NCBI GenBank assembly: GCA_020055645.1
Contig: CM034546.1
Location: 109,399,375 to 109,463,374 of the forward strand
Direction of reading: 5' to 3'
DNA length: 64,000 nt
Origin: Tomocerus qinae
Taxonomy: Eukaryota > Arthropoda > Collembola > Entomobryomorpha > Tomoceridae
Shown here: one piece after another, positions 1 to 62,779 of the stretch
How the letters are laid out: each line of letters starts with the position of its first letter
Numbering within the stretch: the stretch's first letter is position 1
Notes under the pieces: generated by a model
What the model was told of the DNA's origin: nothing
The model's input: the letters and a program-made list of their open reading frames with translations, nothing else
Databases searched by the model: none
Made by a program: the position numbers and the translations under genes

Positions 1-2964
1 AACAGAATATAATATGAACTGTGTTAAAAATGAAAAATATTGTATTTTCTTATTATCCAAAACCAACTTAGCCAACTTGTGACCAACTTTCTGAAAATTG
101 GGGTGATGAACGCACTTCCTATTATATTATTCACCTAATTCATCCAAGGTATACTTAAATCCATTAATTACACTTAACTGTATTGAATTTTCGAAGGCGT
201 CTTTAGACTTTTATGCATATGAACATATTATCAGTTACTAACCAGCTTTTACATTTAGAAGACGGGGCATTAAGGATACTTTCCGGTAATTACACCAAAG
301 AGTAAGGTTCATGAAAGCGATTTTTTTTCATTCTTGGTATAAACCATAAACTGGCATACAACTTCTAAATACCCACCAATACTAGATTACAACTACAAAC
401 AGAAATGAATTAATGTTTTCAATAATGTACCCTAACGCATACCTACATGTACTAAATTTAGCACATGAAGGTATGCGTTGGGGTACATTATCGAAAACAT
501 TAAATTACAATTCTTAACTCATGAATCGTATCGATCGATCCTGATATCGAACTAGCTCCTTACAATTTCTTTAAAAGATCAAGAAGATAAATATGCATAA
601 TTCACTAGTACTCAAAAGATAGTTCATACTTCCTAAATCAAAATGTCAAAGGACTGTAATACAACCTTGAGGGGGAGTGCTGACAATGAGACGAATAAAT
701 GGGTACTCAGTACCGAATAACTAGCAGGCTGACTATAATATCCAAACCTATGACATCAAATCATCAAGATGTGTAATCAGTCAGGTACAAGGACGTACTC
801 CTACATGGACATCGCTTCAAAAAGAACTTGATCCTATAAAAAGACTCATTGTGCCCGGTAATACTACAAATTCAATGAAAGTACCTCATTGACTTTGCCT
901 TATGGTAGACTTTAAAACAATTTGAAACACTTCGTTCACATCATTGGAGAAAGATGGAAATCTATTTTTAAGGGTTCTTTAGGAGTAAGTAATTAAGTAA
1001 ATTCCTAATTCCTACTAAGGAGTAGGTATTCGACAGCCTGACTTCTTACTGACTTCGATGTAGCCATTTTTCGACCGTGGTGATTAAAGTGTAGAGTACT
1101 ACACATGTAGAGTACAGAGTACAGATAGCAGCCTCTGTTACACTCATTTATTTAAGTGTAAATGAAGTCATTAATTTCCACCAATTTCTTTATTTTGCTG
1201 TAACATTTTGGGAAGAAATAGTTGCATATAGAGGTTGGTTATACTATATTTTAAAAGGTCGATAATTACATGCAATACAAAACTCAAAACAACTCATGTA
1301 TAACAAATTGAACATAGTAATGGTAACGAGCATATTCCCAAATAGTACTATGGATTATGGACATCAACAAACTTATAAAATGTATGTCTTCCACTTTATT
1401 TGTAATTCATTGTAAGCTTTAATTTGTGCTCGCATGAACATTATATTAATGCACAACAAAGATATCTTTATTGTAAAGAGCCACTAAATAAGCGTATACA
1501 CCTTGCTGGAATACATAGATGTAGCAATTCATCGACTCCACTACCTTTTGCAGTTGCATATCTAATCTAAAAGAACAAGGCAATAGACAGGTAACAATAA
1601 CTATATGAACATCATGAATCTGTCTCCAATTCATCTAAGATAAATAAACCACCCCCACCCACAGAATAACTTATAGTGTGGTCTGAGTAGTCCATCGTCC
1701 ATTCACAGCCTACATAAACTAACAAGTACGCACTTTTATTACCATATACTCCACAGACACACTACACTACATAAAAATGAATAAATTAAATAACGCATGT
1801 TGTACATCGGTTCACTACTATTTACTATCGGCAATCGGTATATATACAATGTAGATGTACACTAACCGTTCAATCGTTCTATGACATTACAAATTGGGAT
1901 ATAGGTATACGTGATCATGATTTGGCATTTGCAATAATATTACTATTGTTCAGAGTTTATCTATCAATAGATCTAAACATTGCACAGGGATTTTTTACTA
2001 GACTAGCTCCAGTATTGCAAATGACTTCATTATTTAAATAACTTTAATACTATTTATGCTATATGCCCTACCATAGCTTATGGACCCAAAAAAAGGAAGT
2101 ACGTCAGATCTAGACAGGTGATAAGTACCTAGGCAAGTCATTAAGTCTACTATGCATACAAACTGAAATAATTCGGAAGATAAAAACTGATAATTATCAA
2201 ACGATAGCGGAATAGGAACCATAGTTCTATGGTTATCAGTTATAGAAGTAAGTACAAAATTAAGAGAAACAAGTTTAGTACCAGTACTAAACTTATTTCT
2301 ATAACTTACAAGTTACAAGTGTATAGTTGTGAGTGTGTGTGTGATTTGTTCTTACACTAGTTGTCGTTTTGTGATATGCTTGGCACAAAGGCATGTCATG
2401 TCGTAAAATAAACCTATACATGAAATCTATATAGACATAGAAATATAAAGTTAATTTCGTGTAAATCAACAACCCAAGGAATAGGTCAGGCATACAGTGC
2501 TATACTGGTGTATAACAAGTGGGATTTGTTTATAATATCAAACTACTCATATGGCCGAGGGTATATGTTCATTTGACATCACTCAATTCATCCAACCAAA
2601 CACATGTACGCCTGTAATATGAAAGCATGTCATTGGGAGCTAGACACGTGGGTGAAACCTAATTTAGCGTACACGATGCCCGTCAATCAAATACAAAACA
2701 TACGTAATCGTAATACATACCATCAATATCTTAATACCTAAATATTTTACACTACATCTGAGCTACAGTAATTCAACAGTCTATGATCCACATTCAATAT
2801 GCAACATAACTTATATGTAACTAAAATGACTAGACATAGATAATTAGCCTAAAAACATAAATCAATGAGAAATAACAAACAAATTGTGAGAGCTAATTTC
2901 GAATTGGCAATAGTACATACTACATACGCGTAAAGAAAAAAACGGTAATAAATGTTTCACTTAC
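1..2964. other. No coding exon recognised; probably MRTF intron
   Basis: Lies downstream (minus-strand sense) of the last MRTF exon seen. Open frames here are short and lack family motifs or paired splice sites. It should be intronic to MRTF because RPEL2, RPEL3, the SAP domain and the leucine zipper of that family must follow and were not found. The one structured item is the hairpin at 411-502. Confidence 0.5.
411..502. repeat. Hairpin (MITE-like inverted repeat)
   Basis: A 34-bp left arm (411-444, beginning taatgttttc) is followed after about 24 bp by its near-perfect reverse complement (469-502). The short loop is itself partly palindromic. It carries no coding capacity. It looks like a very small foldback or MITE remnant; family unknown. 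Confidence 0.7.
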
Positions 2965-3030
2965 GGGGTAGTATCCCTTGTTCCACCAGTTGGTTCATTG
3001 GTCTTCGCAGCAGAAGTTTTACTTTGAGAG
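2965..3030 (-). CDS. Mrtf: MRTF exon 3: first RPEL motif
   Basis: A 66-bp exon too short for a simple ORF search. Read in the phase left by the previous exon it gives SLKVKLLLRRPMNQLVEQGI followed by Leu-Pro, which matches the first actin-binding RPEL repeat of MRTF proteins. Splice signals are ttttag upstream and GTAAGT downstream. Confidence 0.85.
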
Positions 3031-6000
3031 CTAAAATAAAATAAAAAATATTTATTTAAGATGTTTAAGATTTTCGCATTATTTAAATTATTAAAATAAA
3101 TGCTCGGTGATGTTGATGCTAAACTTATATTGAACATGTGTACAGCCCTTTTCCCTTATATAAAACTAACTTCTCACATACAGTGCAAAAATGTAGATGT
3201 TCTAAGCAACAAGTTAAGATAGATCCAGTTTATGGGTTAGCAACTGAACTAATTGGTTATTATCAACTATCAACACTTCGACTTCAACCATTTTTGTTAA
3301 GTCAGACAAAATCTTAATATCACTGCTCACTATTTCAACAATATATAGTTAACTATAACTATAATAGCTTTGATTATTTTAACCATAGCATGACTAGACC
3401 TACATTAGCGAGTAGTAGTAGTGATCATTAACCAAAGCATAAATAGAACAAGGGAATGAACATACATGTACACATGACACACAATGGCCATAATAACCGA
3501 ACGAAGCCTATTTAATTAATCTTACCCATATTATTTTTGTTACGTTACAACCCAGGTTTGCCTTTCCCTTATCTTTACAACTGTAGCTTTTATTTATTAA
3601 AAAACAGCATCAACATAGTGTGTTATTTGTTTTAATGTTGACTGTAATGTAATTTGGCATTATAATATATGTCGGTCGGAAAGTATCATGCTTTTAAGAT
3701 CCAGAAGAAGGAAGGGTGGTACTATTTATCAAGCGTGGGCGACACATGTACATGGCACGACGACACACAATCCTGGTAGAATAAATCACGGAAGAATTCA
3801 TTTTATCAATATTCTCTCATCATAACATAGTTGAAGACACTAAAAATGCTCCATTTAGCGGTTCTTAATCTTAAGATTCAGAGATTCACACTTTAAAAAT
3901 AGCTGCAGCTACGTAAACTAAACTGAAAACATCCCAGCTATATAACTTCCTTCGCATTTTCTACACAGTGATCTTCTGACTGAAACGTAAAAAACTGTCG
4001 TCCTTCACGAAACAATGCTTTATAACGAGAGAACAAAACAATTTAATACTATACGAAAATAGTCGATGCTGTTCAGACCATGTGGCTCTTTTATTTTTGA
4101 AAAGCAGAAACAGATAAACAAAATATAATAAACTATTTAATAAAATTAAATATAAATAAATCTAAGAAATTAGATCCGGGTAAAAGTACACATTTTACTT
4201 ATCAAGCACACCAAAAATTGTAGTAAACCATTGATAGTCATATTCTCCAATCCAAGCGTCTTTTATGTACGTTCATCATGCAATAAAACCTTCAACTATC
4301 ACACAAAAAAGACGATCGGGAAATTATACACTTAGCATCTAAAAATGCCTAATCGTCAGTATTATTTGGGCAAACTGTAGCCAATGGTATACATAGTACA
4401 TTTTCCTTTCCTCTACAATTATCAATCTAATTACATTAATTACTAATCTTTCTCATTAAGCCAATTTGAATTGTACCCTAAATCAAAATCTTTGTTATCG
4501 ATAAAACTACTATGTCCTTAACTGTCTCAGGGTTAATTAAAAATGACACTGAAACTTACATTCTTTATTTCGATCCATACTTGGCTGCAAGGGAGAATCA
4601 TCAACCTGTACGTTCGGAGGAGATGGTTGTGGATCAGGTGATATTAAGGAATTTCCTGAAGTAGATGACGACGAAGTAGATAAGGAATGGTTACTATCCT
4701 GGGCCCCTGCAAGATGTTGGTCTATACTTGATAGTGTAGCACCGAGATCCATAGGGTCCATCTCCACCTCGTCAAAATCGTCGAAGAAATCAGGGCACAA
4801 ATGGAACAATGTTTCGATCAGGTCTAAATCTAACTGGATCGGCCAAATCAAATTTTCTTTGTTTGAATGATCCTTTCCACCTGAAATTAAATAAATGGAA
4901 TTAATGAAATATTTTTCCATATCTAAATAATGACTAATACTAATTACATTTACAGACATTTTACATTGCATCCCCAAATAATTTTGGACTATTTATAGCA
5001 TTGACCATAGCATGATGTAGTTTAAATATACAGGTAGTAGGTAAGTGATTGACGTTTTCATATTTCAGAACTATCCATATACCTACATAGTAAAATTCAA
5101 ATTAAATAAGGGACGATTTGATCACTACTATCATCCAGGCAATGTAACTAGTGAAATTGTGTTCATGGACGAAAAAATGTACTAGGAAGTCAAAAGGAGG
5201 AAGACAAGACGCACTTGTACAGTACATCAGGAAAAACAAACATTCTGAGTCATCTTCCGAACACATCAACCAGGCCTAAGGTATATATTAACATTCTTCA
5301 TGAAATGAATCTTCCAGCTCTATCTAACACTATCCGTCTGACGCACTGTAAGCTCGACTCACTCACTTCATTTCGTTCAGAAAGTCATACTAGACACCCG
5401 AAATAAATCATCATCCCACATAATTCCTTTCATTCCGCCACATTTAGACTCTCGGATATATACAAAGCATGCTAATACACATGACATAAACCTTCCACAG
5501 TTAAACCGAACTGAACTGAGGAAAGTATTAGGAAAACGAACAACTCCAGCTTTGAAAACAGAAGAAGTTAACTAAACTTACTAGTTTTCTCCTTCTTTCA
5601 TACCATGTAATGTAAAAGCTGAAGCAAGCTTATTTTGCAACCGCATGCAGCTGATGTAATTGTAAGAAGATGTATATCCGCCGTAGTACACATAGGTCTA
5701 GTCTTAAGTCTTAAATCCAAACTTCCAACTGATTTAAGCTCAGACTCAGAGGGTGAATTATACCTATAAATGTACCAATCCCACCGAATATAGTAATTAT
5801 AACTATGCAATATTTTCATCTTATGTAAGAACAAGTTCACCATGATACCATCTTATATATACCTGGTAGTTTGGAAGATATTTAAGTATACAAAGGCACA
5901 CTACTGTAGTGCACCAAAAAGTGTATCATGCATGCAATGCAAAAGCAAATTCACCTCTGTTCAGCTTCCATCCAACACCAACACACTAGCTACACATAAC

Positions 6001-13480: not shown

Positions 13481-14222
13481 GTCGGGTATCAGCAGATAAT
13501 CTCCCGTACTAGAAAATCTCCCCTATTGGAAAATCTCCCCGTTGGACAATCTCCCTATTGGAAAATCTCCCCGTTAGACAATCTCCCTATTGGAAAATCT
13601 CCCCGTTAAACAATCTCCCTATTAGAAAATCTCCCCGTTAGACCAGCTAATCTCCCCGGTATGAGAATTAAGGAGAAACGACAGAATGAAAATCGAAACT
13701 ATAAAACTTAGTAATTTGAGACATAGAGGTGGATCGGACATGGGAATGATGAGACTATGAGATTCCAATAATGTAATGGAAAACTGCACATTGTTTACCT
13801 GTACTTGAAGTAAACTGTTTGTCCTTCTACTGTTTCAAAAATACTTACATCCAATTATTATTTGTATTTGCTATTAATAAATACCAAAACTAATGCACAA
13901 AAAGCAATATATTTGCTGCCCGCCCCAAATTGCTAGTAAAGGAAGGAACTAGGATAAGAAAAAATGGTATAAACGAGATTGGTCACTACTATTAATTACT
14001 TGATAATAATATGTATCGATTTTCGTTCTGTCGTTTCTCTTTATTTCTCATAGCGGGGAGATTAGCTGGTCTAACGGGGAGATTTTCTAATAGGGAGATT
14101 GTCTAACAGGGAGATTTTCCAATAGGGAGATTGTCTAACGGGGAGATTTTCCAATAGGGAGATTGTCCAACGGGGAGATTTTCCAATAGGGGAGATTTTC
14201 TAGTACGGGAGATTTTCCGACG
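13481..14222. mobile_element. Foldback element whose arms are tandem repeats
   Basis: Each arm of about 200 bp contains several copies of a 32-bp unit (tctccctattggaaaatctc plus cccgttagacaa); right-arm copies are the reverse complement of left-arm copies. Beyond the tandem part a unique arm segment (ggagaaacgacagaatgaaa) is also inverted. The middle, about 13730-14010, is unique and non-coding. Outer ends (gtcggg... and ...ccgac) are imperfectly inverted. This matches foldback (FB-like) architecture. Confidence 0.8.
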
Positions 14223-19066: not shown

Positions 19067-19216
19067 GTAAAGTTTGTCCGTTGTCCCTTATTTTAATTAA
19101 TTACTTTATTAAGTAATGTTATTCATTCTTTGATCTTTTGACTTTTGAAATACAGTAGAGGTTTCCCACAATTGGTGACCGGTCACTAAATTAACATGAA
19201 TAGGTATTGAAATGAC

Positions 19217-19869
19217 GGCTGAATTTAGGCAGCGGTACTTTGTTGCCACTGTCCCCGCTGTCGCCACTGTTGCCGCTGGGAGGTTTGGGGGGTTAGCGGC
19301 GACAACATAATAGCGGAGACAGTGGCAACAGCGGCAACAGTGGCGACACGGTACAACCACTAGTGGCAACAGCGGCGACACGCAAAATCCACTAGCGGCA
19401 ACAGCGGCGACACAGCTAAAACCACTAGTTAACCTATCGTCTTTTCCATTTGCCTCCCGTCACTATTTTTGCCTCTTTTTTGACCTAACCTAATAAACAA
19501 TAAACATACTACATTATGTTTATTTTTAATTAGGTTAGGTCAAAAAAGATGCAAAAATAGTGACGGGAGGCGAGCATTGAGCTCAGAGCAACAGTGCACT
19601 GGCTTATATTAGGTTTAGCGGCAACAGAGGAAATCAGATTAATGTGTCTCTGTTGCCGCTAGTGGATTTTGCGTGTCGCCGCTGTTGCCGCTAGTGGATT
19701 TTGCGTGTCGCCGCTGTTGCCACCTGCGATTTTTGTGTGTCGCCACTGTTGCCGCTGTTGCCACTGTTTCCGCTTTTATGCTGTTGCCGCTGACCCCCTT
19801 TACCCCCTAGCGGCAACAGCGGCGACAGCGGGGACAGTGGCAACAAAGTACCGCTGCCTAAATTCAGCC
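19217..19869. mobile_element. hAT-like foldback element, copy 2, with 8-bp target duplication
   Basis: Inverted ends ggctgaatttaggcagcggt and its exact complement are flanked by gaaatgac at 19209-19216 and 19870-19877. An 8-bp duplication is typical of hAT transposons. The arms are built of degenerate tandem gccgct/gttgcc units. A separate palindrome sits in the centre (19452-19571). It lies in the inferred leader intron of the CENP-A gene. No transposase is encoded. Confidence 0.85.
19452..19571. mobile_element. Palindromic MITE nested in the hAT-like element
   Basis: A 43-bp arm starting gcctcccgtcactatttttg is mirrored with about one mismatch, around a short AT-rich loop. It sits between the two arms of the host element, so it either inserted there or forms its core. 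Confidence 0.7.
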
Positions 19870-20080
19870 GAAATGACTACAGTACCTGCTTGTGTTATCC
19901 TGGAATTGTGAGAAACGTCTATTGTTGATTGTGTGGCAAAACTTTTACTAGTAATTTTTGATTATGTATATGTAAATATAATGAAGGTAACGTAAAATGT
20001 ATATTATTGTTGTATAAAATTTTATTATTATTGTATAGTATTTATAATATTTAATTTTTATCTAGGCCTTCAACGGGAAA

Positions 20081-21247
20081 ATGGATCACCCCGGCGGAAA
20101 TAAACGACGGAAAGGGCCAAGGATTTCAACCCCAACACTAGAGTTCACCGGACGTGTTCCACGACGAGTATTAAATAAGGAAAATTATGATATAAATTCT
20201 GATTCTGATAAATCGGATCTTTTAAGTGTGAAAAGCTTTTCAAGCCTTTGGAGTGGCAATACCTCTGAAATTTACGATAGAAGTACATTACCAACCCCCA
20301 TTGAAACTCCAAGAAAAATTTTAAGAGATAAAGACATTGACAGAAGACCACCTGCAGCTTTAAATAGTTCGCCATCAGCATCACCATCAACATCATCTCC
20401 ACGAGTACCAGATGAGCAAGAATTACGCAGTCAAGGAACGACGCCATCAAATGTATCTTTAGCAGCAAATCGAAAAACCGGGGTGGAAAGTGAGAATTCT
20501 AAATCATATACTAAGCAGCCTAGTACTTCGGCTGCAGCTAGAAAAGAATTAGAAAAACAAAAGAAAGTAGCCCAATCTGTATCCCATGGGGTTCCTAAGA
20601 CACCGCCAAAACCATCTAATCGTTCCAAGAGAACTGAATCGCCAAGTAGTTCGGCATCAACAACACCTTCACAACAACCAAGTGAGCAAGAATTACGCCG
20701 TCAAGAAACGACGCCATCAAAACGAAAATCCGGGGTGGAAAGTGAAAAATCTAAATCATATGCCAATCGACCTAGTACTTCGGCAGCAGCTAGAAAAGAA
20801 TTAGAAAAGCAAAAGAAAGTAGCCCAATCTGTATCCCATGGGGTTCCTAAGACACCGCCAAAATCATCTAATCGTTCCAAGAGAACTGAATCGCCAAGTA
20901 GTTCGGCATCAACAGCACCTTCACAACAACCAAGTGAGCAAGAATTACGCCGTCAAGAAACGACGCCATCAAATGTGTCTTTAACAGCAAAACGAAAATC
21001 CGGGGTGGAAAGTGAAAAATCTAAATCATATGCCAATCGGCCTAGTACTTCGGCAGCAGCTAGAAAAGAATTAGAAAAACAAAAGAAACTAACCCAATCT
21101 GTATCCCATGGGGTTCCTAAGACACCGCCAAAATCATCTAATCGTTCCAAGAGAACTGAATCGCCAAGTAGTTCTGCATCAGCAACACCTCCAAGAGTAG
21201 TTCGAATTACTAAGACACAACCAAAACCACCTAAACCTTCCAAGAGG
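20081..21247 (+). CDS. CENPA: CENP-A exon 1: long basic tail
   Basis: 389 codons. It opens with a basic patch (NKRRKGPRIS), then an acidic Ser/Asp segment and several TP/SP sites of the kind phosphorylated by proline-directed kinases (inference). From residue 111 it is dominated by the tandem repeats listed separately. Without splicing the frame would end at 21316 after a further 22 codons. The stretch between the exons contains an imperfect inverted repeat (about 21310-21400). Confidence 0.8.
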
Positions 21248-21950
21248 GTAAGGAGATCGGATTCACCTGAACAGGTTAATATTTTTCGTAATCAGAGATC
21301 GAACTTAGGCAGATAAACTTTTTCCTTGCCTCCCGTTCTGCTCCCGCCTGATGTGGGAAAGAGGAGAGGCGGGGACGGGAAGCAGTTTATTTGCCTTGGA
21401 TCGAAAAGTAAATAGATGATAGACGGCCATTTGTTCGCGAGCTTGTGAAACCCGTTCAGGGGAAAGGAAGGCCTTCCCATGAGTCGCTCTCGTAGGAAGG
21501 GTAACGGTTTTCTCTGAAGAAGTTTATTATTAAAAAGAATGGAAAAGCACTTCGCGGGAAGAGAGAAACTAATGTCTATTATTGACACATAGCTTTAGAG
21601 CAATTTCATTTAAAATTTTACTTAAATTCTTTCAGGTGTCGTTAGCTTTCGTTCCTAATAAGCGTCTGAAGATTGCAAATATTGATCAGCATATACATCA
21701 TCTACAAAAAAATACAAATCGCTTAATAACCAAAGTGGCGTTTCAACGGGTTGTACGAGAAGTAACCACGCAAATTACACGCGAAGACTACAGATACACG
21801 GCCGCTTCTCTGGAAGCCTTACAAGAGGCAGCGGAGTCCTACTTAATTGGTTTGTTCGAGGATGCGTATTTATGCACAATGCATGCAAAACGAGTTACAT
21901 TATTTTTGGCAGATATGAAATTAGCACGAAGAATCAGAGGAGATCACTGA
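20081..21950 (+). CDS. CENPA: CENP-A-like centromeric histone H3 variant with giant repetitive tail
   Basis: CENP-A replaces H3 in centromeric nucleosomes and marks the kinetochore site. Exon 1 20081-21247 (donor AGG|GTAAGG) joins exon 2 21636-21950 (acceptor ttctttcag) in phase 0, giving 493 residues. Residues 390-493 carry the histone fold: AFQRVVREV (αN), LEALQEAAESYL (α2), LFEDAYLCTMHAKRVTLF and LARRIRG. DAYL and VTLF match CENP-A rather than canonical H3 (DTNL, VTIM), and loop 1 is one residue longer than in H3. Residues 1-389 are a basic Ser/Thr/Pro-rich tail, about ten times the H3 tail and longer than any CENP-A tail I know. An alternative in-phase donor at 21272 (CAG|GTTAAT) would add eight residues. 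The splice is inferred; the fold identity is clear. Confidence 0.88.
20411..21190 (+). repeat. In-frame tandem repeat in the CENP-A tail (3 units)
   Basis: Units start at 20411, 20681 and 20933 (270, 252 and about 258 bp) and each begins with gagcaagaattacgc. They encode 84-90-residue blocks containing PSTSAAARKELEKQKK, SVSHGVPKTPPK and NRSKRTESPSSSAS. The middle unit lacks 18 bp (six codons) present in the others. All length changes are multiples of three. Near identity points to recent amplification or homogenisation. Confidence 0.9.
21636..21950 (+). CDS. CENPA: CENP-A exon 2: histone fold
   Basis: 104 codons plus TGA. The H3 segment GTVALREIRRYQ is replaced by an unrelated-looking stretch (IDQHIHHLQKNTN), but the KNT/RLITK block aligns with the H3 KST/LLIRK block. 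Loop 1 plus α2, the CENP-A targeting region, falls at about residues 435-470 of the full protein. It ends RIRGDH, without a long C-terminal tail. Confidence 0.9.
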   Translation: MSLAFVPNKRLKIANIDQHIHHLQKNTNRLITKVAFQRVVREVTTQITREDYRYTAASLEALQEAAESYLIGLFEDAYLCTMHAKRVTLFLADMKLARRIRGDH

Positions 21951-61632: not shown

Positions 61633-61885
61633 ACCAGTACTCACGGTTGTAAGAATTTATGACAAAATTTTTATATAGAACATAGAAGTTTGGGGTATAA
61701 AAAAATTGGTATTAGAATAATTTTTTGACCTCTTGTATATTTGATCCCTGCGCCAAGTAAGCAAACTTTTTCAGTACTAAGGTAAATAGGGTAGGTACAT
61801 TGCATAGTTAATTTTTGGTAAAAAGTCGTATTATTTGGGGTGTGCGCGAGTAAAAACAGCGTAGGCTCTTTACTTTTTTCCGAAA

Positions 61886-62779
61886 ATGGCAGGTAAAGGG
61901 AAAGGCAAAAGTAAGCCTGACGAAACTGAGGAAAATGAGGAAGAGGAGGCAGAAAATGACGAAGAGGATGTTGAGGATATGGAAACTGAATTTATGAAAA
62001 AATGGGGAAAAGAAATGGATACGGTACGAACAAAATTAAGTGTGTTACAATGCGGTTTTGAAAAATTAGACGAGAACGTAGTCAAAATAAAAGATAAAAT
62101 TCCCGATCAGCTTCCGAAAAACACTTCTGTCATTGTTGATTCTTCTGCTTCATTTTCCATTCCTACCTTTGACTCCAATTATATGACTCCATCAGGTTTT
62201 CTGTTAGAAATTGAGGAATTTCTTTCTTGGAAGGGAGCACCAAAAAACAGCTGGATGTACTTTATTTCTCGCATGTTTCCAAAAGATTCCGACACGGCTC
62301 ATTGGTGGCGAGAGCAACAGTCACGTTGTAAGTCTTGGAAAGAGTTTAAAACTGCTTTTATTGAGTATAATAAAACAGGGCAAACTGAGGATATGTTATT
62401 GCAAAATCTATTCTCAATGTCGCAAAATATTGATGATCCATTCGAAACATATGCATGGAAAATCAATTATACGTATAAGAAAATAAATATTGACGTTGAT
62501 ATTGATACAATTGTTGAAAGAATTATAAATTCTTGTTTGCCTGAAATTTCTATTATCTTACGTACACGAGACTATTATTCTGTGACTGAATTGATTATCA
62601 AAGCCAGAGAAATAATTTACGATCTGAATAAAGTACGTAAAATCCAAAATAAGCAATTGTTGCGTGCTCGATCTACGGATCCGCTGGTAAAACCTTCCCT
62701 CCTCAACCTTTTTAAAAAGAAATTCTATTCTCAAAGTTCTAAACCTGAGTCATCCGAAAAAAGTCAGAGGGAGAAGTAA
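61886..62779 (+). CDS. Gypsy-type retrotransposon Gag (capsid) protein
   Basis: 297 residues forming the capsid-like part of Gag. A Lys/Glu-rich N-terminus precedes a helical region with W/F landmarks (WWREQQSRCKSWKEFKTAF) typical of retrotransposon Gag. The start has good context (aaaATGg). It stops before any zinc knuckle; the knuckle appears just downstream in another frame, fused to the protease. The frame is intact, so the copy is recent or functional in this part. It sits 270 bp after the primer binding site, the usual leader length. Confidence 0.85.
   Translation: MAGKGKGKSKPDETEENEEEEAENDEEDVEDMETEFMKKWGKEMDTVRTKLSVLQCGFEKLDENVVKIKDKIPDQLPKNTSVIVDSSASFSIPTFDSNYMTPSGFLLEIEEFLSWKGAPKNSWMYFISRMFPKDSDTAHWWREQQSRCKSWKEFKTAFIEYNKTGQTEDMLLQNLFSMSQNIDDPFETYAWKINYTYKKINIDVDIDTIVERIINSCLPEISIILRTRDYYSVTELIIKAREIIYDLNKVRKIQNKQLLRARSTDPLVKPSLLNLFKKKFYSQSSKPESSEKSQREK

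What the first reader, a model, noticed from the sequence alone, without database searches (positions are those of the whole stretch)
20081..21950. CENP-A-like histone with a ~410-residue N-terminal tail
The second exon is a clear CENP-A-type histone fold (FEDAYL, RVTLF, RIRG). The in-phase first exon adds about 390 residues, far longer than the H3 tail and longer than CENP-A tails I know of. Such a tail could host kinetochore adaptors or kinase sites (many TP/SP motifs), perhaps taking on roles usually held by other inner-kinetochore proteins. The identity is solid; the tail's function is inference.
Basis: partly seen in the sequence, partly recalled or inferred. Interest (0 to 1): 0.82.

Follow-up and report, generated by a model that had tools for sequence, protein, structure and literature searches.

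The report
Centromere histone with repeat-expanded long tail
The genome of an apparently animal species, not identified here, carries a gene that is the best candidate for its centromere-marking histone, with a front tail of about 410 residues, about twice the usual published range, because one stretch of 84-90 residues is present three times in a row.

Summary
A two-exon gene on the + strand (20081-21247 or 21274, then 21636-21950) encodes 493 or 502 residues: a ~407-416-residue tail and an H3-type histone fold (Pfam Histone 5.2e-26). Exon 1 is very likely coding (no stops; GC by codon position outside all 599 other windows). The genome searches showed no second copy of either exon. The fold shares 11 of 32 CENP-A-specific residues with human CENP-A (chance about 2); two other divergent H3 genes share 2 of 35 and 1 of 34. 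CenH3 identity is therefore likely, not "solid": a small tree does not reject grouping with H3 (p 0.33), H3's Gln in "FQR" is kept, and another divergent H3 (L016, ~118-residue tail) is a second candidate. With one unit it would be ~240-250 residues. TP/SP motifs barely exceed composition. Best reading: an ordinary CenH3 job with a disordered, recently expanded interaction tail. Replacement of other inner-kinetochore proteins is untested; most genome searches for it did not complete.

The parts
20066..20080 (+). probable 5' UTR end after a possible 3' splice site (TTTTTATCTAG, last base 20065); frame is open back to here, so a further upstream exon cannot be excluded
   Evidence: sequence and open frame
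20081..21274 (+). exon 1 (ATG 20081; donor after 21247 or after 21274, both phase 0), encodes 389 or 398 tail residues
   Evidence: only match found in the genome
20414..20683 (+). tail repeat unit 1 (residues 112-201, 90 aa)
20684..20935 (+). tail repeat unit 2 (residues 202-285, 84 aa; lacks 6 codons present in units 1 and 3)
20936..21187 (+). tail repeat unit 3 (residues 286-369, 84 aa), followed by a degenerate 40-base fourth piece at 21207-21246
21248..21635 (+). intron (388 nt; 361 nt if the second donor is used), ends TTTCAG
21636..21950 (+). exon 2: about 18 linker residues and CenH3-type histone fold (FEDAYL, RVTLF, RIRGDH), stop TGA
   Evidence: Pfam PF00125 5.2e-26; PDB H3-family matches; residue test

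Best explanation
The gene is the CENP-A/CenH3 gene of this organism (or one of two CenH3-like genes). Its fold replaces H3 in centromeric nucleosomes and marks where the kinetochore is built. The ~410-residue tail is a disordered, positively charged arm that projects from the nucleosome and holds short binding motifs for loading, cohesion or checkpoint factors and/or linker DNA, as tails do in other species. Its extra length comes from recent in-frame tandem duplication of one 84-90-residue module, which would give each nucleosome six copies of that module instead of two. Shown here by sequence: open frames and splice signals in phase, coding character, fold, tandem units, no second copy found. 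Inferred: splicing, expression, centromere location, tail partners.
For: Histone fold in exon 2. No second copy of either exon found in 334 Mb. It has the human CENP-A residue at 11 of 32 sites where CENP-A departs from H3, null mean 2.2, 0 of 20,000 permutations; with fly CID 8 of 53, P 0.013. L016 scores 2 of 35 and L018 1 of 34 with CENP-A. Loop 1 is one residue longer than in H3, F84 is Tyr, T107 is Ala (alignment). Coding evidence for exon 1. Three tandem units, DNA identity 94.0, 92.9 and 97.0%, length differences in whole codons. The charge-hydropathy rule calls the tail disordered and the fold ordered; net charge of the tail +40. Precedents seen in passages: C. elegans tail binds KNL-2 and is needed to set centromeres in the germ line (PMC8259991); Drosophila Cid tail motifs linked to cohesion and BubR1 (PMC8200288); internal duplication in a nematode CenH3 paralogue tail (PMC9577544).
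Against: No transcript, no localisation. The 9-row tree does not reject query with H3s (AU p 0.326); neither tree has a starred branch. With Cse4 the query shares only 4 of 25 sites, against 3 of 29 for L016 (no permutation made). Gln of FQR is kept although the criterion wants it lost. Best PDB matches are H3.3 chains, 88.9 bits, against 85.5 for CENP-A 6muo. L016 is a rival candidate in the same genome. Differences among the repeat units show no significant purifying selection (10, 13 and 4 nonsynonymous codons, all near random placement), so the module need not be functional in each copy.
Confidence: 0.72

Rival explanations
1. The window gene is a fast-evolving, perhaps germline-specific, H3 variant or CenH3 paralogue, while L016 (C2:52792453-52793470, H3.3-type introns, ~118-residue basic tail) is the main centromeric histone.
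For: L016 has a long divergent tail. The query shares 7 of 20 sites where L016 departs from H3/H3.3, null mean 0.95, 0 of 20,000 permutations, and a clade of query with L016 is not rejected (AU p 0.221). The query is as near to L016 (49 of 89) as to CENP-A (48 of 88). Germline CenH3 paralogues are known in Drosophila and mosquitoes (PMC8200288, PMC7475650 passages).
Against: L016 keeps H3's loop 1 length, F84, Q68 and T107 and shares only 2 of 35 CENP-A-specific residues; the query departs from H3 at three of these four (alignment).
Confidence: 0.17
2. The tail is mainly a DNA-binding arm: repeated basic and S/T-P motifs contact the minor groove of linker or satellite DNA and follow satellite change (centromere drive). 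This is a rival on the tail's partner, not on CenH3 identity.
For: Net charge +40; minor-groove motifs are reported to have evolved repeatedly in CENP-A tails (PMC12321929 passage).
Against: Only 1 strict [ST]P[KR][KR] motif, 0.46 expected.
Confidence: 0.3
3. The tail stands in for inner-kinetochore (CCAN) proteins, binding outer-kinetochore parts directly.
For: CENP-C cupin (PF11699) and CENP-N (PF05238) gave no match in the genome.
Against: Those absences are weak: the search is exon by exon, no control genome passed the cut-off in either search, and putative Hymenoptera CENP-C is reported to lack the cupin (PMC4359364 passage). CENP-T, CENP-I and the Ndc80 control did not complete. Drosophila, with CENP-C as its only known CCAN member (PMC10697814 passage), has a CID of only 225 residues. 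No known domain in the tail.
Confidence: 0.08
4. The gene model is wrong: exon 1 is a separate gene or the fold uses a short unseen first exon; or the triple repeat is an assembly artefact.
For: No RNA; near-identical tandem units are a classic place for assembly error.
Against: Both donors and the acceptor are in phase 0; exon 2 lacks a start; exon 1 has no domain and no other copy found; units differ by 7-18 bases and a 6-codon gap, so they are not simple duplicated reads.
Confidence: 0.1

Closest known systems
CENP-A / CenH3 (human CENP-A, PDB 3nqu)
   Same: 48 of 88 fold residues; FEDAYL and RVTLF; 11 of 32 CENP-A-specific residues
   Different: 140 residues in all against 493 or 502; loop 1 one residue shorter than human; no LEEGLG end; keeps Gln in FQR
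Drosophila CID (PDB 6xws)
   Same: single-domain H3 variant with divergent tail
   Different: 225 residues, fold matched from 131; only 36 of 90 fold residues shared
Tribolium castaneum cCENH3
   Same: longer loop 1, divergent tail; loss of H3 Phe and Thr
   Different: 125 aa, 24-residue tail (PMC7598501 passages), about 17 times shorter; it lacks the Gln that is kept here
C. elegans HCP-3 and Caenorhabditis hcp-3L paralogues
   Same: 'exceptionally long' tail (PMC13001451 passage); one paralogue, C. sp54 hcp-3L3, has an internal tail duplication
   Different: ends at residue 287 (construct name in PMC8259991); here three tandem units and about twice the tail
Canonical H3 / H3.3 of the same genome (L003, L017)
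   Same: H3 fold, 44-45 of 89 residues
   Different: no ARTKQTARKS tail, longer loop 1, and no introns at the two H3.3 positions inside the fold

Membership tests
CenH3 / CENP-A | H3-type histone fold at the C-terminus | tested here: met
   PF00125 5.2e-26; PDB H3 family
CenH3 / CENP-A | N-terminal tail unrelated to H3's | tested here: met
   no ARTKQTARKS; no Pfam family passes its cut-off for the tail (best E 0.037); the only PDB match up to E 1 is a ribosomal protein at 0.033
CenH3 / CENP-A | loop 1 longer than H3 | tested here: met
   18 residues between (V/A)RE and ALQ against 17 in own H3; 19 in human CENP-A (alignment)
CenH3 / CENP-A | absence of H3's Gln69, Phe85 and Thr108 (Met counted), criterion as given in PMC7598501 | tested here: inconclusive
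   Phe to Tyr and Thr to Ala: met. Gln kept (FQRV): not met. 2 of 3 (alignment)
CenH3 / CENP-A | phylogenetic grouping apart from H3 | tested here: inconclusive
   AU p 0.326 for query with H3s; query with CENP-A 79/86, below the tool's star; query with L016 not rejected, p 0.221; few rows, CID the only insect CenH3 on hand
CenH3 / CENP-A | location at centromeres | not testable with these tools
   needs microscopy or ChIP
Canonical H3 / H3.3 | near-invariant H3 sequence with ARTKQTARKS tail | tested here: not met
   44-45 of 89 fold residues identical; different tail
Long-tailed CenH3 that replaces CCAN parts | CCAN genes missing from the genome | tested here: inconclusive
   no match for PF11699 and PF05238, neither with a control genome over the cut-off; CENP-T and CENP-I requests unanswered

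The most novel reading that the evidence does not exclude
The tandem module is a tunable multivalent dock: each extra copy adds a binding site for a kinetochore or loading factor on every centromeric nucleosome, so that copy number sets centromere strength and varies between populations as a response to centromere drive, with some work of inner-kinetochore proteins moved onto the histone itself.
Probability: 0.1. Interest if true: 0.75.

Novelty: new variant of a known kind. Interest (0 to 1): 0.38.

Why it matters
CenH3 tails evolve fast and their function is known in few species. A tail about twice the usual published range, made largely of near-identical units, is a natural experiment: copy number can be compared among individuals and species and set against satellite change, and units can be removed one by one. 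If the unit binds a kinetochore or loading factor, this gives a direct link between tail length and centromere strength.

Tried and rejected
Structure of the fold without an alignment: mean pLDDT 63.7, pTM 0.32, two merged helices; too poor, so no fold search was made. The tail structure job was never accepted.

Relatives of exon 2 in viral contigs: 30 stretches matched a pattern, none was confirmed. NCBIfam: nothing near a cut-off. PDB search with the tail: only a ribosomal protein at E 0.033, rejected as chance.

Repeat-unit selection: dN 0.023-0.071, dS 0.055-0.088; nonsynonymous changes not significantly fewer than random placement, so no claim of purifying selection. Codon-usage log-odds trained on 895 codons did not separate frames well (one antisense frame scored higher but holds 6 stops), so it is not used as evidence.

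TP/SP richness rejected as strong evidence: 17 against 11.7 (P 0.043), 11 against 7.2 with one unit (P 0.064); strict CDK sites 6 against 2.3 (P 0.026), with one unit 3 against 1.3 (P 0.14); Aurora-type sites 16 against 19 expected. One KEN box at 33-35 (P 0.10; 0.05 with one unit) and R..L at 6 places against 1.5 (P 0.003; 4 against 1.0, P 0.011 with one unit) are noted only; motif names are recalled.

Telomere check to name the kind of animal: no run of three TTAGG or TCAGG units in seven 6-kb contig-end stretches; undecided. The species was not identified; that it is an animal is inferred from gene content (receptor guanylate cyclase-like exons).

Full report
What is there. The window lies at G000:C1:109399375-109463374 of a 334 Mb genome in 115 contigs. 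On the + strand an ATG at 20081 opens a frame that runs to 21316; a second open frame, 21573-21950, holds a histone fold and ends in TGA right after RIRGDH. An acceptor (TTCTTTCAG) ends at 21635 and two donors, after 21247 and after 21274, are both in phase 0; they match CAG|GTAAGT at 6 and 7 of 9 places. The protein is 493 or 502 residues. A possible acceptor just before 20066 suggests a 5' UTR intron; an upstream coding exon cannot be excluded. The species is not identified.

More than chance. The exon 1 region has 416 open codons; 500 dinucleotide shuffles of it reached at most 231 and 60 shuffles of the whole window at most 183. GC at the three codon positions is 0.46/0.57/0.23, a spread of 0.337; 599 other, overlapping windows of equal length in this sequence average 0.046 and reach at most 0.183. 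A codon-usage score trained on 895 codons was not informative.

The fold. Pfam Histone at 5.2e-26. In the whole genome exon 2 has 21 matches at E <= 0.001 (a lower bound by the tool's own statement): itself, 17 that span residues 19-103 at 52-54% identity, and 3 partial ones. Of the 17, I read the protein of four (L002, L003, L005, L008): all H3 (three others were printed in a wrong frame, and the proteins of the other ten were not read). The 3 partial ones are exons of intron-bearing genes: L017 is H3.3; L016 and L018 are divergent H3s whose exons break at the same two places as in H3.3 (splice signals looked at for L016 only). The best PDB matches are H3.3 chains (88.9 bits) and an H3/CENP-A chimera, with CENP-A itself at 85.5 bits (60 of 176 matches shown), so plain similarity does not settle the identity.

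Residue test. At 32 aligned sites where human CENP-A differs from H3 and H3.3, the window protein has the CENP-A residue at 11 and the H3 residue at 8; permuting gives 2.2 on average, and none of 20,000 permutations reached 11. L016 scores 2 of 35 and L018 1 of 34 (P 0.36 and 0.78). Against CID the window protein scores 8 of 53 (P 0.013), against Cse4 4 of 25 (no permutation). The test treats sites as independent and ignores substitution bias. Loop 1 is one residue longer than H3's, Phe84 is Tyr and Thr107 is Ala, but Gln68 is kept: 2 of 3 of the residue criteria quoted for Tribolium CenH3. Trees of 9 and 8 rows have no starred branch; grouping with H3s is not rejected (AU p 0.326); query with CENP-A gets 79/86 in the second tree, and query with L016 is not rejected either (p 0.221). 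The window protein also shares 7 of 20 residues by which L016 departs from H3 (null 0.95), so L016 may be a relative and a rival centromeric candidate. I therefore hold CenH3 identity as likely, not settled.

The tail. About 407-416 residues precede the aligned fold. Residues 112-201, 202-285 and 286-369 are tandem units of 90, 84 and 84 residues; pairwise DNA identities are 94.0, 92.9 and 97.0%, followed by a degenerate fourth piece of 40 bases. Units 2 and 3 are closest, and unit 2 lacks 6 codons. With one unit the tail would be about 239-248 residues. The tail has no other match in the genome (1 match, 44 candidates scored) and no domain. By the charge-hydropathy rule it is disordered, with net charge +40. 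SP/TP sites number 17 against 11.7 expected (P 0.043), strict CDK sites 6 against 2.3 (P 0.026), but the copies are not independent: with one unit the values are 11 against 7.2 (P 0.064) and 3 against 1.3 (P 0.14). Differences among units do not show selection.

Comparison with print, from passages only. CenH3 tails are given as 20 to 200 residues (PMC3156773). Tribolium has 24 (PMC7598501). C. elegans HCP-3, ending at residue 287 (PMC8259991), is called exceptionally long (PMC13001451, a preprint). PDB chains are 225 residues for CID and 229 for Cse4. A C. sp54 paralogue has an internal tail duplication and a C. afra paralogue carries exons of hcp-4 (PMC9577544). Ten literature searches of an open-licence library, seen as listings, with passages opened in ten papers, showed no CenH3 tail of this length; most listed papers were not opened, the mosquito Cid paper was not held, nor are most papers of subscription journals, and no eukaryotic sequence database was on hand.

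How it most likely works. Established knowledge: CenH3 nucleosomes mark the centromere; tails carry motifs for loading (KNL-2 in C. elegans), cohesion and BubR1 (Drosophila), and DNA. By inference the tail here is a flexible arm with such motifs, and tandem duplication has tripled one module per histone, six per nucleosome. Whether the module binds anything is not shown. The idea that the tail replaces inner-kinetochore proteins has almost no evidence: CENP-C cupin and CENP-N searches found nothing, but the cupin is reported missing from putative Hymenoptera CENP-C, no control genome passed the cut-off in either search, Drosophila manages with CENP-C alone and a 225-residue CID, and the CENP-T, CENP-I and Ndc80 requests did not complete.

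Verdict. Observation confirmed, interpretation partly supported. A probable CenH3 with an unusually long, repeat-built tail: a new variant of a known kind, moderately interesting.

Noticed in passing
L016 (G000:C2:52790000-52795000), - strand, about C2:52792453-52793470: Divergent H3 gene with H3.3-type introns and a ~118-residue basic, proline-rich tail (MPRGSQPRQ...); fold H3-like (71 of 94 to H3.3) but shares 7 of its 20 departures from H3 with the window protein. Second candidate for a centromere- or germline-specific H3.
   Followed up: partly
L018 (G000:C2:40490500-40496000), + strand, about C2:40492600-40493280: Another divergent H3 gene with exon breaks as in H3.3 and a rearranged tail (MARVKQMTGSSTDKRPLQTAKKSTGGG...), 77 of 93 fold residues as H3.3.
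   Followed up: partly
L002 (G000:C2:24433429-24436680): H3 variant in one open frame with PPAGPGGVKRPHRFRPG and an RVRGERS end, 87 of 94 fold residues as own H3.
   Followed up: no
L014 (G000:C4:1-6000): Contig C4 begins with a 60-base satellite, about 101 copies at 80% match over bases 2-6000 of the 6 kb fetched; a candidate centromeric or subtelomeric satellite.
   Followed up: no
L010 (G000:C1:140453534-140454001): Degenerate 20/60-base tandem arrays near the far end of C1; no run of three TTAGG or TCAGG units in seven 6-kb contig-end stretches.
   Followed up: no
19216-19870: Large foldback element just upstream of the gene: arms of 198 bases, 90% complementary, rich in a 32-base TTGCCGCTAGTGG-type repeat, with a nested hairpin of 57-base arms at 19452-19571.
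   Followed up: no
26441-53393: Pieces of a receptor guanylate cyclase-like gene on the + strand: ANF receptor exons (2 of 3 over the Pfam cut-off) and kinase-homology exons (at or under the cut-off); the name of the gene is inferred.
   Followed up: no
61865-62779: Open frame of 304 codons with a Retrotrans_gag match just over its cut-off and an Arc capsid match under it.
   Followed up: no
13494-13643 and 14069-14218: Two arrays of 16/32-base repeats on opposite strands about 0.4 kb apart, perhaps arms of another foldback element.
   Followed up: no
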